Origin: Ancylobacter moscoviensis
GTDB lineage: Bacteria; Pseudomonadota; Alphaproteobacteria; Rhizobiales; Xanthobacteraceae
NCBI RefSeq assembly: GCF_007559435.1
Contig: NZ_VMBP01000001.1
Location: forward strand, 310,001-374,000
Length of the DNA stretch: 64,000 bases
Direction of reading: 5' to 3'
In this document: piece by piece, positions 15,340-25,145 of the stretch
Layout: every line of letters starts with the position of its first letter
How positions within the stretch are numbered: the first letter of the stretch is position 1
Made by a program: the position numbers and the translations under genes
Notes under the pieces: model-generated
The model's database searches: none
Seen by the model: the letters and a program-made list of their open reading frames with translations, nothing else
Told to the model about the DNA's origin: nothing

Positions 15340-17676
15340 TCACTCCCGGTCCGGGAAGAGCCGCTTGCTCAGGATGGCGTGGACGCCCCAGTTGCCGTCC
15401 ACCACCTGGGTGATGCCGAAATCGACGGCCGCCGACATCAGGGCGATCGCCTCATCCTCGCTCAGCCCCTTCGTCGTCATCAGGAAGCGCCGCACCTTGC
15501 GGAAGGCGTCGCGCATGGCGAGGTCGAGCGAGGACTTGGCGTAGACCTCGCTCTGGCCGTCGGCGCCGAACTCGGCGAGGTAGTTGGGGTGGCTGAAGCC
15601 GGTCAGTATCCAGTCGTCCGGCGTCTCGATCAGCGGATAGGTCAGATCGGCCAGCAACGTGCCGGCGACGTCGGCCTTCTTGTGCAGCACCACGCGGAAG
15701 GTGCCGGTCATCGAGCACTCGATCGCCGTGCCCGACAATTCGCCGTCGCCCTGCGCGGCGTGCGGATCCCCGACCGACAGCAGGGCGCCGGGGACGGACA
15801 CCGGCAGGTAGACCGTCGCGCCCTTGCCAAGCCGCCAATTGTCGAGATTGCCGCCGAAATAGGCCGGCGGAACGGAATCGACGAGATCGGCCTCGCGGGG
15901 AGCGACGGCGATGACGCCGAAATGCGGGCGCAGCGGGATGCGCACGCCCTCCAGCACCCGCGTCTGCGGCGTCACCGTGCCGGGGCGGACGGGCACGCCG
16001 GGATAATCGTAGAGAACGTGGCGGACGCCGAACGGGTCGGTCTGCGGCTCCCAGCGATAGGCGTGCACCGCCTGCGCATAGGGCTCGTCCGCATCGGCCA
16101 TGATCTCGTAGATCGTCACCGTCTCACGTGGATGCGGCTCGCTGAGGAATTCGGAATAGTGGAAGCCCCACCACGCGGCGACGCTGCTGCCGAAGACCCG
16201 CCCGGCATGGGCGGGATGGCGCGAGGGGCGCGGCTCGATATCGAGGATATGCACTTCCAGCACGTCGCCGGGCTGGGCGCCGCGCACCGCGACGGGGCCG
16301 GTGCAGATGTGCACGCCGAAGCCTTCCCCCGCCCCGCGCCCGAACACCGAGGCGTCGAGCGGGCCGGCGCCGCGCTGGTCCACCGCCTTGGCGGTGCGCG
16401 TCCAGTGGAAGACGCTTTCCGCCCCGGCATCGCCCTCGATCATGCGCTCGGGGTCGTCGGAGGCGTGCTGGGTCAGCGTCTCCACGGTGACGATATCGCC
16501 GGAGGCGATCTCGATCAGCGGCTTGAGCGAACGGCTGAAATAGCCCCAGTGCACGTGCTGGGCGTGCACCGGCAGATAATGGCGGGCCGGCGTCTGCGGC
16601 GTCGCGTCCGGCTCGCCGCTCACGGGAACGACGCTCCGACGGGTGTCGGGCTCGGATTTCGTCTGGCGCGCGCGCAGCTGGACCAGCGCCTCCTGCGGCC
16701 AGCCGCGCTGCCCGCTCGGCAGGGCGCCCTGGCCCTGCCGGTCGGCCTCGCGCCGGCGCAGCTCGCGCGGGGGGAGGCCGAAGCGCTCGCGGAACAGGCG
16801 GCTGAAATGGGCGGAGTCGGCGAAACCGTAGCGATAGGCGACCTCGGAGATCGGCACCGCCGCCTCGGCGGGATTGGCGAGATCATGCCAGGCGCGCTGC
16901 AGGCGCCGCTCCCGCACGTAATGGCTGAAGCTCTCGCCCGTGCCCTCGAACAGCTTCTGGAGATAGCGCTCGGAGATGCCTTCGGCCTGCGCCACATCGG
17001 CGATCGAGACGTCCTCGCTGCCGATGCTCCGCTCGATGGTCGCGTAGAGGCGCTGGAGCAGCGCCGCGCGGCTCGATGACGAATCGGCGCTCGTCGTCGC
17101 GAGCTCCCCCGAGAGGGCGAGAAGAAGCTCGGCCGCGCTCTGCGCCACCGCCTCCCATTCGGGCTCGGAGAGCCGGTCGAGCGCCGTCGTGGCGGCCTGG
17201 ACGGTGCGGGCCAGGATGTCCGGCAGCCCGTCGGCCTCGAAGACGCGCGGCGGGCAGGCGGCGAGCGGGGCCGCCTTGCGGCCGCGGAACGCCTCCGCCG
17301 GCACCGAGAGCACGAGCGCGCGCAGGCCGCGCTGGAACTGCACCTGCCAGTCCGCGGCGCGCGGCGCGAGGATGACCTGTCCGGCGGGAACGATCTGCGG
17401 CTCGCCGCCCGTGACGAGAACGGTGCTGTTCCCGACCGGCAGCAGCAGAAGCGGCAGGCCGGTCCGCGTCGGCAGGGGCCGCAGCACCTGCGCATCGGCA
17501 GAGAGCGTACCCAGCCGCACCCCGAGCGAGGACAGGCGCGAGAGCGCCGTGGCGTGCGCGGGCGAGCCGGCGCGCACGCCGAGCGATTGCAGCCCGAAGC
17601 CGGCGAGCACGTCCTGCCAGGCGCGCTCGCGCGCGTCCCCGGAATAGGACTCGCTCGTGAACGGCTGGGCATTCAT
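15340..17676 (-). CDS. AraC-type regulator fused to a formamidase/acetamidase
   Basis: This 778-residue protein joins two complete modules. Residues 1-205 resemble the cupin-like sensor domain of FeaR/NdoR-type AraC regulators (GQVILAP near 99-105). Residues 210-306 form the double helix-turn-helix, with ISERYLQKLFEG and a second helix block YRYGFADSAHFSRLFRERFG. A basic, Pro/Gln-rich linker covers about 307-362. Residues 363-778 are a full FmdA/AmdA amidase that lines up from its third residue with the stand-alone amidase upstream and keeps the same blocks (HWGYFS, GELSGTAIE, FLMTT, NWGV). No stop or frameshift separates the modules, so it is a true fusion. The enzyme family hydrolyses formamide or short amides to the acid and ammonia. 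A regulator that also turns over its signal is an attractive reading but unproven. Confidence 0.88.
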   Translation of the reverse strand: MNAQPFTSESYSGDARERAWQDVLAGFGLQSLGVRAGSPAHATALSRLSSLGVRLGTLSADAQVLRPLPTRTGLPLLLLPVGNSTVLVTGGEPQIVPAGQVILAPRAADWQVQFQRGLRALVLSVPAEAFRGRKAAPLAACPPRVFEADGLPDILARTVQAATTALDRLSEPEWEAVAQSAAELLLALSGELATTSADSSSSRAALLQRLYATIERSIGSEDVSIADVAQAEGISERYLQKLFEGTGESFSHYVRERRLQRAWHDLANPAEAAVPISEVAYRYGFADSAHFSRLFRERFGLPPRELRRREADRQGQGALPSGQRGWPQEALVQLRARQTKSEPDTRRSVVPVSGEPDATPQTPARHYLPVHAQHVHWGYFSRSLKPLIEIASGDIVTVETLTQHASDDPERMIEGDAGAESVFHWTRTAKAVDQRGAGPLDASVFGRGAGEGFGVHICTGPVAVRGAQPGDVLEVHILDIEPRPSRHPAHAGRVFGSSVAAWWGFHYSEFLSEPHPRETVTIYEIMADADEPYAQAVHAYRWEPQTDPFGVRHVLYDYPGVPVRPGTVTPQTRVLEGVRIPLRPHFGVIAVAPREADLVDSVPPAYFGGNLDNWRLGKGATVYLPVSVPGALLSVGDPHAAQGDGELSGTAIECSMTGTFRVVLHKKADVAGTLLADLTYPLIETPDDWILTGFSHPNYLAEFGADGQSEVYAKSSLDLAMRDAFRKVRRFLMTTKGLSEDEAIALMSAAVDFGITQVVDGNWGVHAILSKRLFPDRE

Positions 17677-17768: not shown

Positions 17769-19007
17769 TCAACGACCCGCGAAGAGGCTCTTGCGGATCG
17801 AGCCGGTGACGCCCCAGTTCGCGTCCACCACCTGGGTGACGGCGAAATCGACGGCAACCGACATCAGCGAGATCGCCTCGTCCTCGGAGAGCTTCTGCGT
17901 CGTCATGAGGAACCGGCGCAGCTTGCGGAAGGCGTCGCGCATCGCGTTGTCGAGGCTGGAACGCTTGAGGATCTCGTGCTGGTGGTCGGGGCCGAGCTCG
18001 GCCAGATAGTTGGTCACGCTGAAGCCGTAGACCGACCAGACGTCCTCGTTTTCGAGCAACGGGTGATTCAGCCCCTCGAGGATGGTGCCCCCGAGGTCCG
18101 CCTTCTTGTGCAGGATGAACTCGAACTCGCCGGTGAGCGAGATCTCGATCGCCGTGCCGGAGAGCTCGCTGTCGCCCTGCGAGGCGTGGGCGTCGCCGCA
18201 AGAGAACAGGCCGCCAGGCACGGCGACGGGATAGTACATGCGCGCGCCCCTGGCGATGCGCCAGTCGTCCATGTTGCCGCCCGTGTAGTTCGGCGGGATG
18301 GTCGAGACGAAATCCGCCTCGGCCGGGGCGAGGCCCATCGTGCCGAAATGCAGTCGCGCCGGCACCTTGATCCCCGACAGGATGCCTTCCTTCTTGACGA
18401 TGGTGTCGTGGTCGACGCGAACGCCGGGATAGTCGATGGTCGGGTGCACGATGCCGTCCGGGTCGGTCTGCGGCGTCCAGAGATAGGAATAGAGCGCCTT
18501 CACCGACGCCTCTCCCATGTCGAGCTCATAGATGGTGACCACCTCGCGCGGCTTCGGCTCCTCGATCAGGTCCTTGTACTGGAAGCCCCAGTTGGCAGCG
18601 GGATTGGAGCCGAAGAAGCGCCCCTGATAGGCCGGGTTGGCGCTGGGACGCGGCCACGCATCGAGGATGCGCACCTCGATGATGTCGCCCGGCTCGGCGC
18701 CCTCAATGGCGATGGGGCCGGTGAGCAGGTGCACGCCGAGCCCTTCGCCGGAACCGTAGGTGAGCGCCCCGTCCGTGGGGCCGGCGCCGCGCCGGCGCAG
18801 GGTCTTGCGATCCTTCGACCAGTGGAAGATCTCCTCCGCCGCCGGGTCTCCGGCGATCATGCGCTCATAGTCGTCATTGGCGTGATGGGTGATGGTCTCG
18901 ATCACCGCCCGCTCGCCGGATTTCAGCGTGAGGACCGGTTCGAGGGTCTTGCTGAAATAGCCCCAGTGGACGGTGTCGGGCGTGGCGGGCAGGTGATGCT
19001 TGGTCAT
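17769..19007 (-). CDS. Formamidase/acetamidase family protein
   Basis: This 412-residue cytoplasmic amidase spans the whole FmdA_AmdA domain (PF03069 family). Conserved blocks include TVHWGYFSKTLEP near the N-terminus, GAGPTDGALTYGSGEGLGVH, GDAHASQGDSELSGTAIE and the end block FLMTTQKLSEDEAISLM. The start follows from the match of its first residues to the amidase half of the fusion protein. It is 92 bases upstream of the fusion gene and 58 bases downstream of the ABC permease-ATPase gene, all in one direction. It probably hydrolyses an imported amide and frees ammonia. The substrate could be formamide, acetamide or a longer amide; an amino-acid-type binding protein in the operon favours a polar, amino-acid-like amide. 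Confidence 0.9.
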   Translation of the reverse strand: MTKHHLPATPDTVHWGYFSKTLEPVLTLKSGERAVIETITHHANDDYERMIAGDPAAEEIFHWSKDRKTLRRRGAGPTDGALTYGSGEGLGVHLLTGPIAIEGAEPGDIIEVRILDAWPRPSANPAYQGRFFGSNPAANWGFQYKDLIEEPKPREVVTIYELDMGEASVKALYSYLWTPQTDPDGIVHPTIDYPGVRVDHDTIVKKEGILSGIKVPARLHFGTMGLAPAEADFVSTIPPNYTGGNMDDWRIARGARMYYPVAVPGGLFSCGDAHASQGDSELSGTAIEISLTGEFEFILHKKADLGGTILEGLNHPLLENEDVWSVYGFSVTNYLAELGPDHQHEILKRSSLDNAMRDAFRKLRRFLMTTQKLSEDEAISLMSVAVDFAVTQVVDANWGVTGSIRKSLFAGR

Positions 19008-19065: not shown

Positions 19066-20691
19066 CTATTCGGCGGCCATGGTGCTGAGGAAACGGGCCG
19101 TGAGCGGATGGCGCGGCTGGTTGAGGACCCGGTCGGCCGGTCCTTCCTCGACGATCGACCCGCCGGCCAGGAAGACGATCCGGTCGGCCACCTCGCCGGC
19201 GAAATGCAGCTGGTGGGTGGAGATGATCATCGCCAACCCGTCCTCGACGGCGAGGCGGCGGATGACCTCCAGCACCTCGCCCACGAGTTCGGGATCGAGC
19301 GCGGAGGTCGGCTCGTCGAGCAGCAGCACGCTCGGCCCCGGCGCCACCGCCCGGGCGATGGCGACGCGCTGCTGCTGGCCGCCGGAGAGATGGCGCGGCA
19401 GGGCATCGGCGCGGTGGGCGAGGCCGACGCGCTCCAGCAATTCCTGCGCGCGGCGGTCGGCATCGAGCCGCGACAGGCCCTGAACCCAGCGCAGCGGCCC
19501 GGCGATGTTCTCCCGCGCGGTCAGGTGGCCGAAGAGATTGAATTGCTGGAACACCATGCCGACGCCGACGCCGGCGCGCATCTGCGCCGTCGCGCGCGGC
19601 GACAGCCCCCGCCCGCCCTCGTCGGTGCCGAGGAAGCGGCCGCCGACGCGGATGGTGCCGCCCTCCCAGCCTTCCAGCCGGTTGATACAGCGCAACAGCG
19701 TCGACTTGCCCGACCCGCTCGGGCCGAGAAGCGCCACGACCTCGCCGGCGCGCACCGTCAGGTCGATGCCGTCGAGCACGGTCTGGTCGCCATAGTTCTT
19801 GCGCAGCTCCTTCACCTCGACCGCGACGTTGTTGCCGGCGAGACGGCGGGCGCGGGCCTCCCGGTCCGGCCGCGCCAGCGCGGCCTTGGGCGATGCCGGC
19901 GGCAGCGGATCGACGGCGATCTCCTCGAGGATTTCCCCGGCGACATCGGGAGGGACAGTGCCCGCGGCACCGGCCGGCTCCGGCACAGCACGGCCGGGCA
20001 GCAGCGCGCGCAGGAAGCGCCGGAGCTGCTCCTTCGGCGGCGGCCGGTCCAGATCGAGCAGCATCTCGACGACGATCTGGATCACCGCGATGGCGCCGGT
20101 CAGCACCAGATACATGAGGCCGGAGGCGAAGAAGATGGAGAAGAAGTCGAAGGTCGCGGAGGCGAGCTGCGTCGAGCGCAGGGTGAGCTCCTGCACCGCC
20201 ACGACGGAGGCGAGCGAGGAGTTCTTCAGCGCGCTCACCGCCTCGTTGCCGAGCGCGGGCACCATGGAGCGGATGGCCTGCGGCGCGATCACCCGGCGCA
20301 TGATGGCGGCCGGCGTCATGCCCAGCGCCTGCCCGGCGCTCACCTGCCCGCGATCGACGCCCAGCACGTTGGAGCGCAGGATCTCGGCGATGAACGGCGC
20401 TTCGTTGAGCGCCAGCGCAAGGCCGGCGGCGGAGATGGCGGTGAGCTTGATGCCGATGAGCGGCAGGGCGTTGTAGCAGAAGACCATCTGCAGGATCAGC
20501 GGCGTGCCGCGGAAGATGATCGAATAGCCGCGCGCGATGACCGCCAGGGTGCGGAAGCGGCTGAGCTGCATGGCGGCGAGCACCACGCCCATGACGAGCC
20601 CGCCCAGCAGGCCGAGCACCGTGATCAGCAGCGTGTAGCCGACCCCGTCGAGGAGATACGGCATGCTGAGATAGTGGAGGAAGAGATCCAT
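19066..20691 (-). CDS. Polar amino acid-type ABC transporter permease fused to its ATPase
   Basis: This 541-residue protein carries both an inner-membrane permease and an ATP-binding domain. Residues 1-215 form a HisM/GlnP permease with about five helices and the EAA loop NEAPFIAEIL...QALGMTP at 96-127. A Pro/Arg/Ala-rich linker covers about 216-285. Residues 286-541 are a GlnQ-type ATPase: GPSGSGKS at 323-330, signature LSGGQQQR at 435-442, LLLDEP at 456-461 and switch H493. The ATG at 20691 has a GGAAAGG RBS six bases upstream; the ORF extends 20 codons further but without such a site. It serves the binding protein encoded 69 bases upstream. Permease-ATPase fusions occur in some lineages but are a minority form. 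Confidence 0.9.
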   Translation of the reverse strand: MDLFLHYLSMPYLLDGVGYTLLITVLGLLGGLVMGVVLAAMQLSRFRTLAVIARGYSIIFRGTPLILQMVFCYNALPLIGIKLTAISAAGLALALNEAPFIAEILRSNVLGVDRGQVSAGQALGMTPAAIMRRVIAPQAIRSMVPALGNEAVSALKNSSLASVVAVQELTLRSTQLASATFDFFSIFFASGLMYLVLTGAIAVIQIVVEMLLDLDRPPPKEQLRRFLRALLPGRAVPEPAGAAGTVPPDVAGEILEEIAVDPLPPASPKAALARPDREARARRLAGNNVAVEVKELRKNYGDQTVLDGIDLTVRAGEVVALLGPSGSGKSTLLRCINRLEGWEGGTIRVGGRFLGTDEGGRGLSPRATAQMRAGVGVGMVFQQFNLFGHLTARENIAGPLRWVQGLSRLDADRRAQELLERVGLAHRADALPRHLSGGQQQRVAIARAVAPGPSVLLLDEPTSALDPELVGEVLEVIRRLAVEDGLAMIISTHQLHFAGEVADRIVFLAGGSIVEEGPADRVLNQPRHPLTARFLSTMAAE

Positions 20692-20760
20692 CGGCCTTTC
20701 CGCGCTCTGTCGGAGAGGGCGGCCGCGGGGTCGCCGCGCCCGCCCCGTCATCGCGGGACG

Positions 20761-21693: not shown

Positions 21694-21936
21694 TGAACCT
21701 TCTCCTCTGCTTCCGCGTGCCGGTGGGCACGGTGACGGGGACCGAGGAGAAAAGTCTTACGCAGGCGGGGTCCGGCAGACTTGTCTATGGGCGTACCGAT
21801 TGTTGGACGGGTGGCTTCCAACTTTCAGGCACGCGCTGCCCATTAGATGAGCGGCGCCCGACGGAATGGCACCGGCCGGGGCCCGGGAGCCGCGTGCGGG
21901 TGCCCCCGCTCCGCCCATCCGCCGTGATCGGGGAGA
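21694..21936. other. 243-bp intergenic region carrying the binding-protein promoter
   Basis: This gap lies between the 3' end of the GntR gene and the start of the binding-protein gene, both on the minus strand. It is the likely promoter region of the amide-transport operon. I see no coding frame and no strong palindrome in it. Confidence 0.4.
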
Positions 21937-22659
21937 TCAGAAATCGCCGAGGATCGCGTCGGCGAGGCGGGCGACGGTCGCCACGTGATCGCGGCTCGCC
22001 GCATAGGCGGCGTCGCCGTCGTGACGGCGGATCGCGTCGTGCAGCCGGCGCATCTCGCCGATGGCGGCCTCATGGCGCCCTTCCGCCGCGGTGGTCATGC
22101 CGCGCAGATGGCTGATACGGGCGTTGAGCGAACGCACCACGTCCCACGCAACCTCCTTGCCCGCCGCGATGAACAGCTTCTCATAGAAATCCGTCGTCGC
22201 CCTCAGCAACTCGCGCGGGCTGCCGATGCGGAAGGCCGCATCGATGATGTCGATCATGCGCCCCAGTTCGGCGATCGCCGCCGCGTCGGCCTTGAGCGCG
22301 CAGGCGCGCGCCGCCTCGCTCTCCAGCAACCCCCGGATCTCGTAGATCTGCGCCGCCTGCGACGGATTGGGCTTGGCCACCGCCGGCCCCTGGTGCGGAA
22401 TGGTCTCGACCAGTCCTTCCGCCTCCAGATGGCGAAGCACCTCGCGCACGACGCTACGGCTCACCCCCAGTCGCTCGCACAGGGTACGTTCCACCAGCCG
22501 CTCGCCCGGGCGGAAGCGAAAATCGAGGATCGCATCCCGCATTTTTTCGAGCGTGAGGCTGCGCAGGGTCGCGACGGACCGCTCCACCTTCATCTCTTCC
22601 CCAGCCATCGCATCCCCGGCGCCGTTCGATTCCGTCATCGCGACCATCGTCGTCTCCAT
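21937..22659 (-). CDS. GntR family transcriptional regulator, FCD (FadR) subfamily
   Basis: This 240-residue regulator has an N-terminal winged helix at about residues 34-95, with PGERLVERTLCERLGVSRS and the wing VETIPHQGPAVA. The all-helical FCD ligand domain runs from about 105 to 235, with arginine and histidine positions typical of metal-binding FadR-like sensors. Several ATGs occur in the first 23 codons, so the start is not certain. It is divergent from the DUF1185 cluster, and a perfect TGGTATACCA-type palindrome lies between them, so it most likely represses that cluster. It also reads toward the amide-transport operon and could control it too. Ligands of this subfamily are usually carboxylic acids from the regulated pathway. 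Confidence 0.9.
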   Translation of the reverse strand: METTMVAMTESNGAGDAMAGEEMKVERSVATLRSLTLEKMRDAILDFRFRPGERLVERTLCERLGVSRSVVREVLRHLEAEGLVETIPHQGPAVAKPNPSQAAQIYEIRGLLESEAARACALKADAAAIAELGRMIDIIDAAFRIGSPRELLRATTDFYEKLFIAAGKEVAWDVVRSLNARISHLRGMTTAAEGRHEAAIGEMRRLHDAIRRHDGDAAYAASRDHVATVARLADAILGDF

Positions 22660-22783: not shown

Positions 22784-23389
22784 ATGCCTCTGCAGCTCAG
22801 GAAGCTCGTCACCTACTCCGAGACCACGCTGATCGAGGGCGGACGTGCCGCCACGACCCCGCTGCGCATGCACGCCGCGGCGGCGGTGCTGACCAACCCC
22901 TGGGCCGGTCGCGGCTTCGTCGAGGACCTGAGGCCCGAGATCCATGACATCGCCCCTCAGCTCGGCGCCCTGCTGACGGAGGAAGTCCTGAAGCTCGCAG
23001 GTTCGGGCGAGGCGGTGGAAGGCTATGGCAAGGCCGCCATCGTCGGCACCTCGGGCGAGGTCGAGCATGCCTCCGCGCTGATCCACACGCTTCGCTTCGG
23101 CAATCACTACCGCAAGGCCGTGGGCGCCAAGAGCTACCTCGCCTTCACCAACACGCGCGGCGGCCCCAACACCCCGGTCGTGATCCCGCTGATGGACAAG
23201 CTCGACGAGGGGCGCCGCTCGCACTACCTGACCATCCAGTTCTCGATCCTCGACGCCCCGGCGCCGGACGAGATCGTCGTCGCGCTCGGCGCCTCCATCG
23301 GCGGGCGCCCGCATCACCGCATCGGCGACCGCTACCAGGACCTGAAGGATCTGGGCAGCACGCAGGAGCTGGGCGCCGCCCATGTCTGA
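22784..23389 (+). CDS. Amino acid synthesis family protein (DUF1185, PF06684)
   Basis: This 201-residue protein covers the whole DUF1185/AA_synth family. Typical blocks are RKLVTYSETTLIEGG at the start, AAAAVLTNPWAGRGF, YGKAAIVGTSGEVEHASA and the end GGRPHHRIGDRYQD. The family has known structures (from Bordetella and Ruegeria, as I recall) with a chorismate-mutase-like trimeric fold and no settled function; the family name is not evidence of biosynthesis. It is the first gene of the cluster, overlaps the next gene by eight bases, and follows a GntR operator. In the cluster it could play the part that YjgF-fold RutC plays in pyrimidine breakdown, but that is inference. Confidence 0.85.
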   Translation: MPLQLRKLVTYSETTLIEGGRAATTPLRMHAAAAVLTNPWAGRGFVEDLRPEIHDIAPQLGALLTEEVLKLAGSGEAVEGYGKAAIVGTSGEVEHASALIHTLRFGNHYRKAVGAKSYLAFTNTRGGPNTPVVIPLMDKLDEGRRSHYLTIQFSILDAPAPDEIVVALGASIGGRPHHRIGDRYQDLKDLGSTQELGAAHV

Positions 23390-25145
23390 AATGCGTGTCG
23401 CCGCCTATGTCGGCCGTGACGGCCGGCCCGCCCGCATCCGCTACCGGCGCGATGGAGCGGCGGGTGGCGTGCCGGTGGTTCTCATCCACGGCGTCGGCAT
23501 GGCGCTGGATGTGTGGGAACCGCAGATCGAGACTCTCGCCTCCCGCTACGATGTGATCACGCTCGACATGCCCGGCCATGGCGGCTCCAGCCTGCCGCCG
23601 GAGGATGCGTGCCTCGCCGACTACGCCGGCCATGTCATCGCCCTTCTGGACGCGCTGGCGATTCCGGCGGCGGTGGTCATCGGCCATTCCATGGGCGCCC
23701 TGGTGGCGCTGGAAGTCGCGCTTTCCCATCCCGCGCGGGTGCTCGGTGTCGTCGCCCTCAACGCCGTGTTCTGCCGCACGCCGGAACAGCGCCTGGCCGT
23801 TTCGGAGCGCGCCGCCATCCTTGCCGAGGAAGGCAGCTCCGCCTCGCACGAGGCCGCCGTGCGCCGCTGGTTCGGCGAACCGGTGCCGGAAGAGCTGGAA
23901 GCCACGGCCGCGCGTGTCGCCGGCCTGCTCGCCAGCTGCGACCCGGTCGGCTATGCGCGCACCTACGCGCTCTTCGCCGCCTCCGACGAGGCGCATCGCG
24001 ACCGCCTTGCCACGCTGGCCGTGCCGGCGCTGTTCATGACGGCGGACGGCGATCCGAATTCGACCCCCTCCATGTCGGAGGCGATGGCCCGCCTCGCACC
24101 GCAGGGGCGCGCCGAGGTGCTGGCGGAGGCCCGCCACATGATGAACCTCACCGCGCCGGAAGCGGTGAACCAGCGCCTTCTCGCCTTCCTGCAGGAGGTG
24201 GCGCCCACGCCCTTCGACCCGAAGGCGTTCCGCCTGGCGCTGGGCGCCTTCGTCACCGGGGTGACGGTGGTGACCACGCGCAACGCCGCCGGCGAGATGC
24301 GCGGCTTCACCGCCAATTCCTTCACCTCGGTCTCGCTCGACCCGCCCCTCCTCCTCGTCTGCATCGCGAAGACGGCATCGAGCTTTCCGGTGTTCGGCAG
24401 CGCCGAGACCTTCGCCGTGTCGGTGCTGGCGGCGGCGCAGAAGGACGTCTCCGCGCTTTTCGCTTCCAAATCGGCCGACAAGTTCAGCGCCAGCCGCTGG
24501 CATATCGGGCCGGCGGGCAGCCCGGTCATCGAGGGCGCAAGCGCCTGGTTCGACTGCCGCCGCCACAGCCTCGTCGAGGCCGGCGACCATGTGATCCTGA
24601 TCGGCGAGGTCGCCGGCTTCGGCGCCACCGCCTCGCCGCCGCTCGGCTATTGTCGGGGCGCCTATGTCGACTTCGCCCTCGGCCAGCAGGCGCTGGCGAA
24701 GCGCGATGAGCCGGCCCGCGTCGGCGCCATTCTTGAGAGGGACGGCGCGGTGCTGCTGGTCGAGGACGGCAAAGGCGGGCTCGACCTTCCCGCCGGCACC
24801 TGCCTGGAGCCGACCGGCAATCCGCGCAGCCTCAAGGGCGCGCTGGCCCGGCTCGGCGTCGAGGGCCGGCTCGGCTTCCTCTTCGCCGTGTTCGAGACGC
24901 CGGAAGCGGGGAGCGGCCAGGCCGCCGTCTCCATCTATTACCGTGGCACGTTCGAAGGCGTTCCGCACCCGGAAGCCGGCGCCCGGCTCGTGCCGTTCGA
25001 CGCCATCGAATGGCCGCGCCTGCCGGACGAGGCAACGCGGTCCATGCTCGCCCGCTTCGTGCGCGAGCGCAGTGAAGACGCCTTCGGCATCTATGTGGGC
25101 GATGCCGAGCGAGGCACCGTCCACCCGCTCGCCGCCCACGCCTGA
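23382..25145 (+). CDS. Three-domain protein: alpha/beta hydrolase, flavin reductase, Nudix-like domain
   Basis: This 587-residue protein has three modules in one frame. Residues 1-275 are an alpha/beta hydrolase with HG motif VLIHGVG, nucleophile elbow GHSMG (S103), acid near D222/D224 and H252 in ARHMM. Residues 276-432 are a FMN-binding split-barrel flavin reductase, opening with FRLALGAFVTGVTVVTT and including GFTANSFTSVSLDPP. Residues 445-575 look Nudix-like (VGAILERDGAVLLVED, then LPAG), but the REXXEE metal box is not recognisable, so this domain is probably not a pyrophosphohydrolase. The reductase should supply reduced flavin to the luciferase-like monooxygenase encoded next. The hydrolase may cleave its product. 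The arrangement resembles RutD plus RutF joined in one chain. Confidence 0.85.
   Translation: MSEMRVAAYVGRDGRPARIRYRRDGAAGGVPVVLIHGVGMALDVWEPQIETLASRYDVITLDMPGHGGSSLPPEDACLADYAGHVIALLDALAIPAAVVIGHSMGALVALEVALSHPARVLGVVALNAVFCRTPEQRLAVSERAAILAEEGSSASHEAAVRRWFGEPVPEELEATAARVAGLLASCDPVGYARTYALFAASDEAHRDRLATLAVPALFMTADGDPNSTPSMSEAMARLAPQGRAEVLAEARHMMNLTAPEAVNQRLLAFLQEVAPTPFDPKAFRLALGAFVTGVTVVTTRNAAGEMRGFTANSFTSVSLDPPLLLVCIAKTASSFPVFGSAETFAVSVLAAAQKDVSALFASKSADKFSASRWHIGPAGSPVIEGASAWFDCRRHSLVEAGDHVILIGEVAGFGATASPPLGYCRGAYVDFALGQQALAKRDEPARVGAILERDGAVLLVEDGKGGLDLPAGTCLEPTGNPRSLKGALARLGVEGRLGFLFAVFETPEAGSGQAAVSIYYRGTFEGVPHPEAGARLVPFDAIEWPRLPDEATRSMLARFVRERSEDAFGIYVGDAERGTVHPLAAHA

What the first reader, a model, noticed from the sequence alone, without database searches (positions are those of the whole stretch)
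15340..17676. AraC regulator fused to a complete formamidase/acetamidase, beside its stand-alone paralogue
One uninterrupted frame joins a full AraC sensor and HTH unit (about 1-306) through a linker to a full-length amidase (about 363-778). The amidase half lines up from its first residues with the free amidase upstream and keeps the same conserved blocks, so both look active. A DNA-binding protein carrying the pathway enzyme could sense and destroy the inducer in one chain, giving built-in feedback. The fusion sits last in an operon with a binding protein and a fused permease-ATPase.
Basis: partly seen in the sequence, partly recalled or inferred. Interest (0 to 1): 0.85.

Follow-up and report, generated by a model that had tools for sequence, protein, structure and literature searches.

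The report
AraC regulator fused to amidase enzyme
A gene-switching protein of soil and plant-associated bacteria carries a whole amide-cutting enzyme domain on its tail; it is an old, conserved fusion that sits beside uptake and amidase genes and has a matching DNA site in front of them, so the enzyme domain may be how the switch senses its substrate.

Summary
The fusion is real: one open frame of 778 aa (window 15340-17676, minus strand) joins a complete AraC-type regulator (about 1-312) to a full-length FmdA/AmdA-superfamily amidase domain (about 361-778). The same genome has a second one, and fusions are in 28 of 30 genomes of the genus. In 77 of 84 fetched loci (chosen for closeness) it follows binding protein, permease-ATPase and free amidase in one fixed operon. 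In a tree, 42 fused amidase domains part from 30 free ones (98/93), as after one old fusion event. A DNA site, CAA-N5-K-GTRCGC-N5-GWCAA, stands before the operon: 45 exact matches in 63 genomes, 45 of 45 upstream of a fusion gene. A matrix trained on these operons alone finds it at 10 of 10 TRAP-linked and 6 of 10 other type B fusions, and at 0 of 20 fusion-less controls. So the AraC half very probably activates the neighbouring genes. The amidase half keeps nine family-wide polar residues but has H403Q and Y624L, changes at sites (near-)invariant in its free relatives; active enzyme or substrate sensor is open, with sensing slightly favoured. New variant of a known kind (enzyme-fold regulators).

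The parts
15340..17676 (-). AraC-amidase fusion gene, 778 aa (P0001)
   Evidence: open frame, Pfam domains, full-length orthologues in 19 other genomes of the genus at 73-91% identity
17080..17676 (-). AraC N-terminal (AraC_binding_2) domain, residues 1-199; fastest-evolving domain
   Evidence: Pfam 51-187; Foldseek CuxR/ToxT/Rns; 23% identity to the second fusion, dN/dS 0.22-0.41
16741..17079 (-). AraC-type helix-turn-helix DNA-binding domain, residues 200-312
   Evidence: HTH_18 229-309; dN/dS 0.05-0.29
16597..16740 (-). Linker, residues 313-360, with invariant R324-G325-W326-P327 and a predicted short helix 328-339 (model confidence there is low)
   Evidence: alignment A3 of 39 type A fusions, AlphaFold model
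15343..16596 (-). FmdA/AmdA-superfamily amidase domain, residues 361-778; Q403 codon at 16468-16470
   Evidence: 3b9t full-length match; conserved residues; H403Q, Y624L
17769..19007 (-). Stand-alone amidase, 412 aa (P0003), no signal peptide seen by eye
   Evidence: N-termini
19066..20751 (-). Permease fused to ABC ATPase (longest frame; relatives suggest a later start)
   Evidence: BPD_transp_1 51-224 and ABC_tran 326-483; most relatives 533-576 aa
20761..21693 (-). Family 3 solute-binding protein, GTG start preceded by AGGAGAA
   Evidence: start and ribosome site conserved in the genus alignment
21781..21805 (-). Proposed operator of the fusion protein: CAACAATCGGTACGCCCATAGACAA
   Evidence: one of 2 matches in 4.18 Mb, both at fusion operons; 45 of 45 matches in 63 genomes; held-out matrix test
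21754..21759 (-). Candidate -10 element (TAAGAC) 21 nt after the operator's GACAA
   Evidence: read; a TA-type hexamer lies 22 nt after GACAA in 45 of 79 promoters, 28 show none within 40 nt

Best explanation
The fusion is a transcriptional activator of an amide uptake and hydrolysis operon. Its AraC half binds a two-part site (half-sites 22 bp apart) next to the -35 region of the binding-protein gene and switches on binding protein, permease-ATPase, free amidase and its own gene. Its C-terminal amidase domain binds the operon's amide substrate (or product) and passes that information to the AraC half; it has in effect taken over, or shares, the sensing role that the N-terminal domain has in ordinary AraC proteins. 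Shown here: the fusion, its conservation, its single grouping, the operon, the DNA site and its link to fusion genes. Inferred: that the AraC half is what binds the site, that it activates, that the amidase domain senses, and that the substrate is an amide.
For: Recurrence: second fusion in the same genome; 28 of 30 genus genomes; at least 20 of 397 order, 4 of 385 class, 8 of 398 phylum genomes. Operon order fixed in 77 of 84 fetched loci; 5 of the other 7 are cut by contig ends. One grouping of 42 fused against 30 free amidase domains, 98/93; the AraC half of fusion 2 is the nearest AraC relative in the genome, 123 against 72 bits. DNA site. Divergent regulator-target layout at type B and in Caballeronia. 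Constraint: HTH and amidase strongly conserved, N-terminal domain weakly. Fusion-specific H403Q and Y624L fit a change of role of the amidase domain.
Against: No experiment. The amidase domain is as constrained as the free enzyme (dN/dS 0.08-0.19 against 0.09-0.20) and keeps the family-wide residues, which a mere sensor need not do. Several fusion loci show no site: L116, L131, L132, L177 and L181; 12 of 46 fusion-bearing genomes lack the exact motif, 5 of them have it with one mismatch at the expected place, among chance matches at that setting. In the window alone a shorter form of the pattern (16 bp, one mismatch allowed) is no more frequent than chance: 1 match, 4.3 expected. L116, the one fusion with H403, is one of those without a site. 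The amidase part of the AlphaFold model is of low confidence, so nothing is said about domain contacts.
Confidence: 0.62

Rival explanations
1. Trigger-enzyme feedback: the fused amidase is catalytically active, and the regulator hydrolyses its own inducer, so that activation ends when substrate is gone.
For: Nine polar residues invariant in distant family members are kept in 124-125 of 125 fusion rows; about the same purifying selection as the free enzyme; in the ten TRAP-plus-gamma-glutamyltransferase loci (type B1) no partner amidase was found in the fetched 12.7-16 kb, so the fused domain would be the local amidase.
Against: H403Q in 124 of 125 and Y624L in 125 of 125 fusion rows at positions (near-)invariant in free relatives and three outgroup rows; some type B2 fusions also change the Q642-G643 motif. 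In type A and B2 a free amidase stands next door, so hydrolysis by the regulator is not needed there.
Confidence: 0.3
2. The N-terminal AraC domain is the only sensor; the amidase is merely tethered so that enzyme and regulator are made in fixed ratio, without allosteric coupling.
For: The N-terminal domain is kept in both fusions tested and shows the usual AraC fold; fast change of ligand-binding domains can reflect new ligands.
Against: 23% identity of this domain between the two fusion types against 64% for the amidase and 45% for the HTH, although both types have the same DNA site; the linker keeps an invariant RGWP motif in type A.
Confidence: 0.2
3. The conserved DNA site belongs to another regulator, and the AraC half of the fusion is not its binder.
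For: No binding experiment; the divergent GntR gene at 21937-22659 lies next to it.
Against: GntR was found in 0 of 84 fetched loci at E 1e-60; the site occurs at different operon types that share a fusion gene, and in none of 15 fusion-less genomes searched; in Paraburkholderia FT54 it stands at the transporter operon although the fusion is tail-to-tail with it.
Confidence: 0.06
4. Assembly or frameshift artefact joining two genes.
For: None beyond single-genome data.
Against: Open frame in independent assemblies of many species.
Confidence: 0.01

Closest known systems
MocR/GabR family (e.g. EnuR, ectoine catabolism)
   Same: A DNA-binding domain joined to a whole enzyme fold that reads a pathway compound; regulator of importer and catabolic genes (EnuR: abstract of PMC8739950)
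   Different: GntR-type DNA-binding domain plus aminotransferase fold, a repressor; here AraC plus an FmdA/AmdA fold, probably an activator, with the usual AraC N-terminal domain still present
Ada protein (AraC-type HTH with C-terminal methyltransferase)
   Same: AraC-type helix-turn-helix followed by an enzyme domain on the same chain (recalled; only a search listing seen)
   Different: DNA-repair enzyme, self-methylation as signal (recalled); no amidase, no transport operon
FeaR (AraC-type regulator)
   Same: Best NCBIfam match of the AraC half (94.8 bits for P0001, 133.4 for P0002)
   Different: Below the FeaR cut-off of 199; no enzyme domain (recalled)
Methylobacillus flagellatus predicted acetamidase/formamidase, PDB 3b9t
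   Same: 59-60% identical over the whole amidase half, same fold
   Different: Free protein, named a twin-arginine signal protein, with H at 403 and QGDSE; the fusion has Q403 and QGDGE
FmdA formamidase (NF045496) and PF03069
   Same: Same superfamily, conserved GGN-D and GD-H-QGDGE blocks
   Different: 65.9 bits against an equivalog cut-off of 500

Membership tests
AraC/XylS transcriptional regulators | Two-HTH DNA-binding domain (HTH_18) above curated cut-off | tested here: met
   79.3 bits, cut-off 33.6; second fusion 70.8 bits
AraC/XylS transcriptional regulators | Binds a two-part site in the target promoter, half-sites about two helical turns apart (recalled) | tested here: inconclusive
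   A site with 22-bp spacing is found, 45 of 45 matches at fusion operons; binding itself not tested
FmdA/AmdA superfamily (PF03069) | Family profile above gathering score | tested here: met
   109.3 bits, cut-off 27
FmdA/AmdA superfamily (PF03069) | Polar residues shared with six distant members: E399, D471, N610, D612, D637, H639, D644, E646, E653 | tested here: met
   124-125 of 125 fusion rows; no literature assignment of catalytic residues was found
Formamidase FmdA equivalog (NF045496) | Score above curated cut-off 500 | tested here: not met
   65.9 bits
Formamidase FmdA equivalog (NF045496) | Hydrolyses formamide | not testable with these tools
   needs enzyme assay
FeaR | Score above curated cut-off 199 | tested here: not met
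   94.8 bits
MocR/GabR (considered as what it works like) | GntR-type DNA-binding domain plus aminotransferase fold | tested here: not met
   Pfam shows AraC and FmdA domains only
Enzyme-fold regulators in the wide sense | Enzyme domain binds the pathway ligand and controls DNA binding | not testable with these tools
   needs ligand-binding and reporter assays

The most novel reading that the evidence does not exclude
A catabolic amidase was captured once by an AraC regulator and became its inducer sensor, keeping the substrate pocket while class-specific substitutions (H403Q, Y624L) slowed or stopped turnover; the lineage then spread to run at least three kinds of operon (ABC importer plus cytoplasmic amidase, Tat-exported amidase, TRAP importer plus gamma-glutamyltransferase) through one shared DNA site. 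This would be a new family of regulators that read their substrate with a former enzyme, parallel to MocR/GabR but of independent origin and built on AraC.
Probability: 0.45. Interest if true: 0.75.

Novelty: new variant of a known kind. Interest (0 to 1): 0.62.

Why it matters
AraC proteins are a very large class of bacterial catabolic switches, and sensing is normally done by their small N-terminal domain (recalled). Here a complete enzyme has been joined behind the DNA-binding domain, kept across alpha- and betaproteobacteria, and tied to one DNA site. It gives a clean natural test of how an enzyme becomes a sensor: free and fused copies lie side by side, differ at few fixed positions, and a target site is predicted. 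It could also yield an amide-responsive switch for laboratory use.

Tried and rejected
Substrate: not found. Neighbouring window genes looked like a clue but do not recur: at E 1e-60 GntR, DUF1185, the hydrolase-flavin reductase, LLM and enolase-type genes are in 0 of 84 loci, ALDH and MFS in 1 each. The binding protein and permease-ATPase score best against polar amino-acid transporter models among others, all under their cut-offs in the rows shown.

Catalytic residues from the literature: searches listed no active-site paper for PF03069 that I could recognise by title and abstract; passages of PMC4606452 and of the review PMC10781810 name none for this superfamily. I therefore used family-wide conservation, not named catalytic residues.

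Reports of the fusion in print: searches (1 paper; 2; 0; 1) listed nothing that, by title and start of abstract, describes it; I did not open those papers. The library holds open-licence papers only. I did not look at InterPro architectures.

Structure: an AlphaFold model from 39 fusions has pLDDT 68.8, pTM 0.47; the AraC part is good, the amidase part patchy. No coordinate file was in the script box's /data listing, so the places of 403 and 624 could not be mapped. The second folding job was not used.

Alignment of H403 to the most distant rows (FmdA, L010, L104) is doubtful; the claim rests on the free relatives and the three nearer outgroup rows.

Recent duplication of the neighbour: rejected, since fused and adjacent free amidases fall on different sides of a supported branch. 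In one search a quick tree with six distant rows left the order of groups unresolved and did not keep those rows together; they were dropped. The tree used 42 of 125 fused and 30 of 118 free rows. The 125 fused rows are 114 distinct sequences, since some genes were fetched under two labels.

Exact motif: I wrote the pattern after seeing both sites, so its two hits in the own genome are partly circular; the matrix trained on type A only, the other genomes and the fusion-less controls are the independent part. L111-L113 and L115 were in the training set, so their scores are not held out. The shuffled maxima come from one locus (L179).

Full report
Observation. The frame at 15340-17676 (-) encodes 778 aa. 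Pfam places AraC_binding_2 at 51-187, HTH_18 at 229-309 and FmdA_AmdA in the C-terminal part. The amidase half aligns end to end with the solved protein 3b9t (residues 363-778 on 71-483, 607 bits), and Foldseek on an AlphaFold model ranks 3b9t first, other acetamidases next and AraC proteins CuxR, ToxT, CsvR and Rns below. The name formamidase is not shown: the fused and free enzymes score 66 and 70 bits against a formamidase equivalog cut-off of 500.

Recurrence. The genome holds a second AraC-amidase fusion of the same length on contig 9 (P0002, 48% identical over the whole alignment, same four Pfam domains). By region the two share 23% (N-terminal domain), 45% (HTH), 17% (linker) and 64% (amidase). 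In 61 related genomes fusion-length matches are in 28 of 30 of the genus (count) and, in the rows listed, in none of the 31 others. Type A (as in the window) is in 20 of the 30, in 20 of 20 with the free amidase just upstream; type B (as on contig 9) is in 23. Five type B rows are flagged with one stop; for the two that I fetched (L129, L133) the match runs to the end of an open frame, so the flag is the normal stop there. Wider samples, in which only two candidates per genome were scored: at least 20 of 397 order genomes, 4 of 385 class, 8 of 398 phylum, my count of rows that start before residue 100 and end after 770. Named relatives are Ancylobacter, Bradyrhizobium, Tardiphaga and Rhodopseudomonas (the best 80 of 321), Rhizobium, Neorhizobium, Caballeronia, Paraburkholderia, Variovorax, Sinorhizobium and Novosphingobium.

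Gene order. The 84 loci L032-L115 are the 80 best and four plasmid loci, so mostly type A. In 77 the order binding protein, permease-ATPase, free amidase, fusion is kept on one strand within 6 kb; five of the other seven are cut by contig ends, Paraburkholderia L114 has another order, and in Caballeronia L115 the fusion is divergent from the three other genes, some 6 kb from a nitrile hydratase gene. In two Rhizobium loci and one Neorhizobium locus a RidA gene follows. Type B occurs in two settings: B1, divergent from a TRAP transporter and gamma-glutamyltransferase operon (10 loci; the genes were identified by Pfam in L009, and by clustering in the others), with no partner amidase in the fetched stretch; and B2, divergent from a free amidase. 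In 8 of 8 such partners in L116-L119, L121, L122, L125 and L130 there is a twin-arginine type signal (ERRxFLK-like, by eye). In L131 and L132 the neighbour is a distant (33%) amidase.

History. In a careful tree of 72 amidase domains, 42 fused ones lie on one side of a branch against 30 free ones, support 98/93 (six distant rows used were dropped). The AraC half of the window's fusion has as its nearest AraC relative in the genome the AraC half of the second fusion (123 bits, next 72). One fusion event followed by spread and duplication is the simplest reading; the tree is unrooted.

DNA site. Upstream regions of the binding-protein gene in the genus are conserved in a block about 90 bp before the start codon. 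The same signal stands, with the same 22-bp spacing of CAA elements, in the B1 promoters, where GTGCGC-N5-GTCAA is present in 10 of 10 loci. The pattern CAANNNNNKGTRCGCNNNNNGWCAA has two matches in the 4.18-Mb genome: window 21781-21805, and about 50 nt before the start codon of the second fusion. With one mismatch a third place appears, on contig 8, not followed up. In 30 genus genomes the exact pattern has 35 matches, and its reversed control none; in 33 further genomes 10 matches, control two. All 45 lie within 4.5 kb upstream of a fusion on the same strand: 24 within 0.4 kb of a type B fusion, 21 at 4.0-4.3 kb, that is before the type A operon. None is in the 15 fusion-less genomes. Of 46 fusion-bearing genomes, 12 have no exact match; with one mismatch 5 of these show it at the expected place (G006, G008, G271, G392, G399, my reading of positions), though chance matches also appear at that setting. 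In the window alone, a 16-bp form with one mismatch allowed is not above chance (1 found, 4.3 expected).

Held-out test. A matrix trained only on the type A promoters (79 sequences, 51 unique sites) beats all 100 shuffles in 10 of 10 B1 regions and in 6 of 10 B2-labelled regions (L118, L119, L121, L122, L125, L130); L117 is reached by 1 of 100 shuffles, and L116, L131 and L132 show nothing. In 20 upstream regions of related free amidases from fusion-less genomes it beats all shuffles in 0 of 20, best score -2.3. In seven further loci not used in training (L114, L176-L181) the top site exceeds 12 of 12 shuffled maxima in five, each in front of a binding-protein or amidase gene; L177 and L181 have none. 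In Paraburkholderia FT54 the site is at the transporter operon while the fusion is tail-to-tail with it. A TA-type -10 hexamer follows GACAA by 22 nt in 45 of 79 promoters, by 20-21 nt in 4, and is not seen in 28; in 2 the script found no site. This puts the downstream half-site against the -35 region, the usual place for an AraC-type activator (recalled).

Which half does what. Among seven comparisons within the genus dN/dS is 0.22-0.41 for the N-terminal domain, 0.05-0.29 for the HTH, 0.08-0.19 for the amidase half and 0.09-0.20 for the free amidase (one of the seven loci differs). So the DNA-binding and amidase parts are the guarded ones, and the usual AraC sensor less so. Residues E399, D471, N610, D612, D637, H639, D644, E646 and E653, shared with six distant family members, are kept in 124-125 of 125 fusion rows (L112 has Q399, and broken L096 is missing 646 and 653). 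Of 86 positions (near-)invariant in 111 free relatives and identical in three nearer outgroup rows, three are changed in practically all fusions: H403 to Q in 124 of 125 (L116 keeps H), Y624 to L in 125, and M622 to V, I or L in 125. Position 645 is G in 122 of 125 fusions and S in 112 of 112 free relatives, while six distant members have G. L624 also occurs in two distant members, so L624 and G645 need not mean loss of activity; Q403 is the stronger hint, but no catalytic role of 403 is known to me.

Mechanism. I take the fusion to be an activator of the importer-amidase operon and of its own gene (confidence in the regulator role about 0.9), with the amidase domain as substrate-binding sensor (about 0.55, inside an overall 0.62). 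The feedback reading, with an active fused enzyme, stays open at 0.3. The two can both be true if slow turnover ends the signal, so these odds overlap.

Comparison and novelty. It works like MocR/GabR regulators, in which an enzyme fold reads a pathway compound (EnuR abstract), and resembles Ada in having an enzyme behind an AraC-type helix-turn-helix (recalled), but is a member of neither. Database annotation calls such proteins 'acetamidase/formamidase family protein' or 'AraC family transcriptional regulator', so the pieces are seen but, by the searches, not found described together. I file it as a new variant of a known kind.

Noticed in passing
G000 contig 9, 12860-15196 (L009:4861-7197 -): Second AraC-amidase fusion in the same genome, divergent from DctP-DctQ-DctM (TRAP) genes and a gamma-glutamyltranspeptidase-family gene (below the NCBIfam equivalog cut-off), with no partner amidase in the fetched 16 kb.
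   Followed up: yes
window 23382-25145 (+): Another odd fusion: alpha/beta hydrolase (31-259) joined to a flavin reductase domain (288-430) and about 150 further residues without a Pfam match.
   Followed up: no
L116-L119, L121, L122, L125, L130: Free amidases beside B2 fusions carry a conserved stretch of the form MCxGDDxxCPxF before the twin-arginine motif, possibly a metal-binding or regulatory leader (by eye).
   Followed up: no
L176 5589-7998: In Rhizobium johnstonii TP60 the fusion is annotated as two genes (hypothetical protein and amidase), so this copy may be broken in its AraC half.
   Followed up: no
L096 9001-11325: MAG copy of the fusion with a frame break after 640 residues.
   Followed up: no
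L116: The one fusion that keeps H403 has no recognisable operator and a long branch, perhaps a reverted or early form.
   Followed up: partly
L045: Record titled Frankia sp. RB7 resembles the Bradyrhizobium loci in fusion sequence and gene order; possibly misnamed.
   Followed up: no
G000 contig 8, 233035-233059: Third place in the genome that fits the operator pattern with one mismatch; context not read.
   Followed up: no
window 15340-17676, residues 324-339: The linker is not featureless: RGWP is invariant in 39 type A fusions and a short helix is predicted after it.
   Followed up: partly
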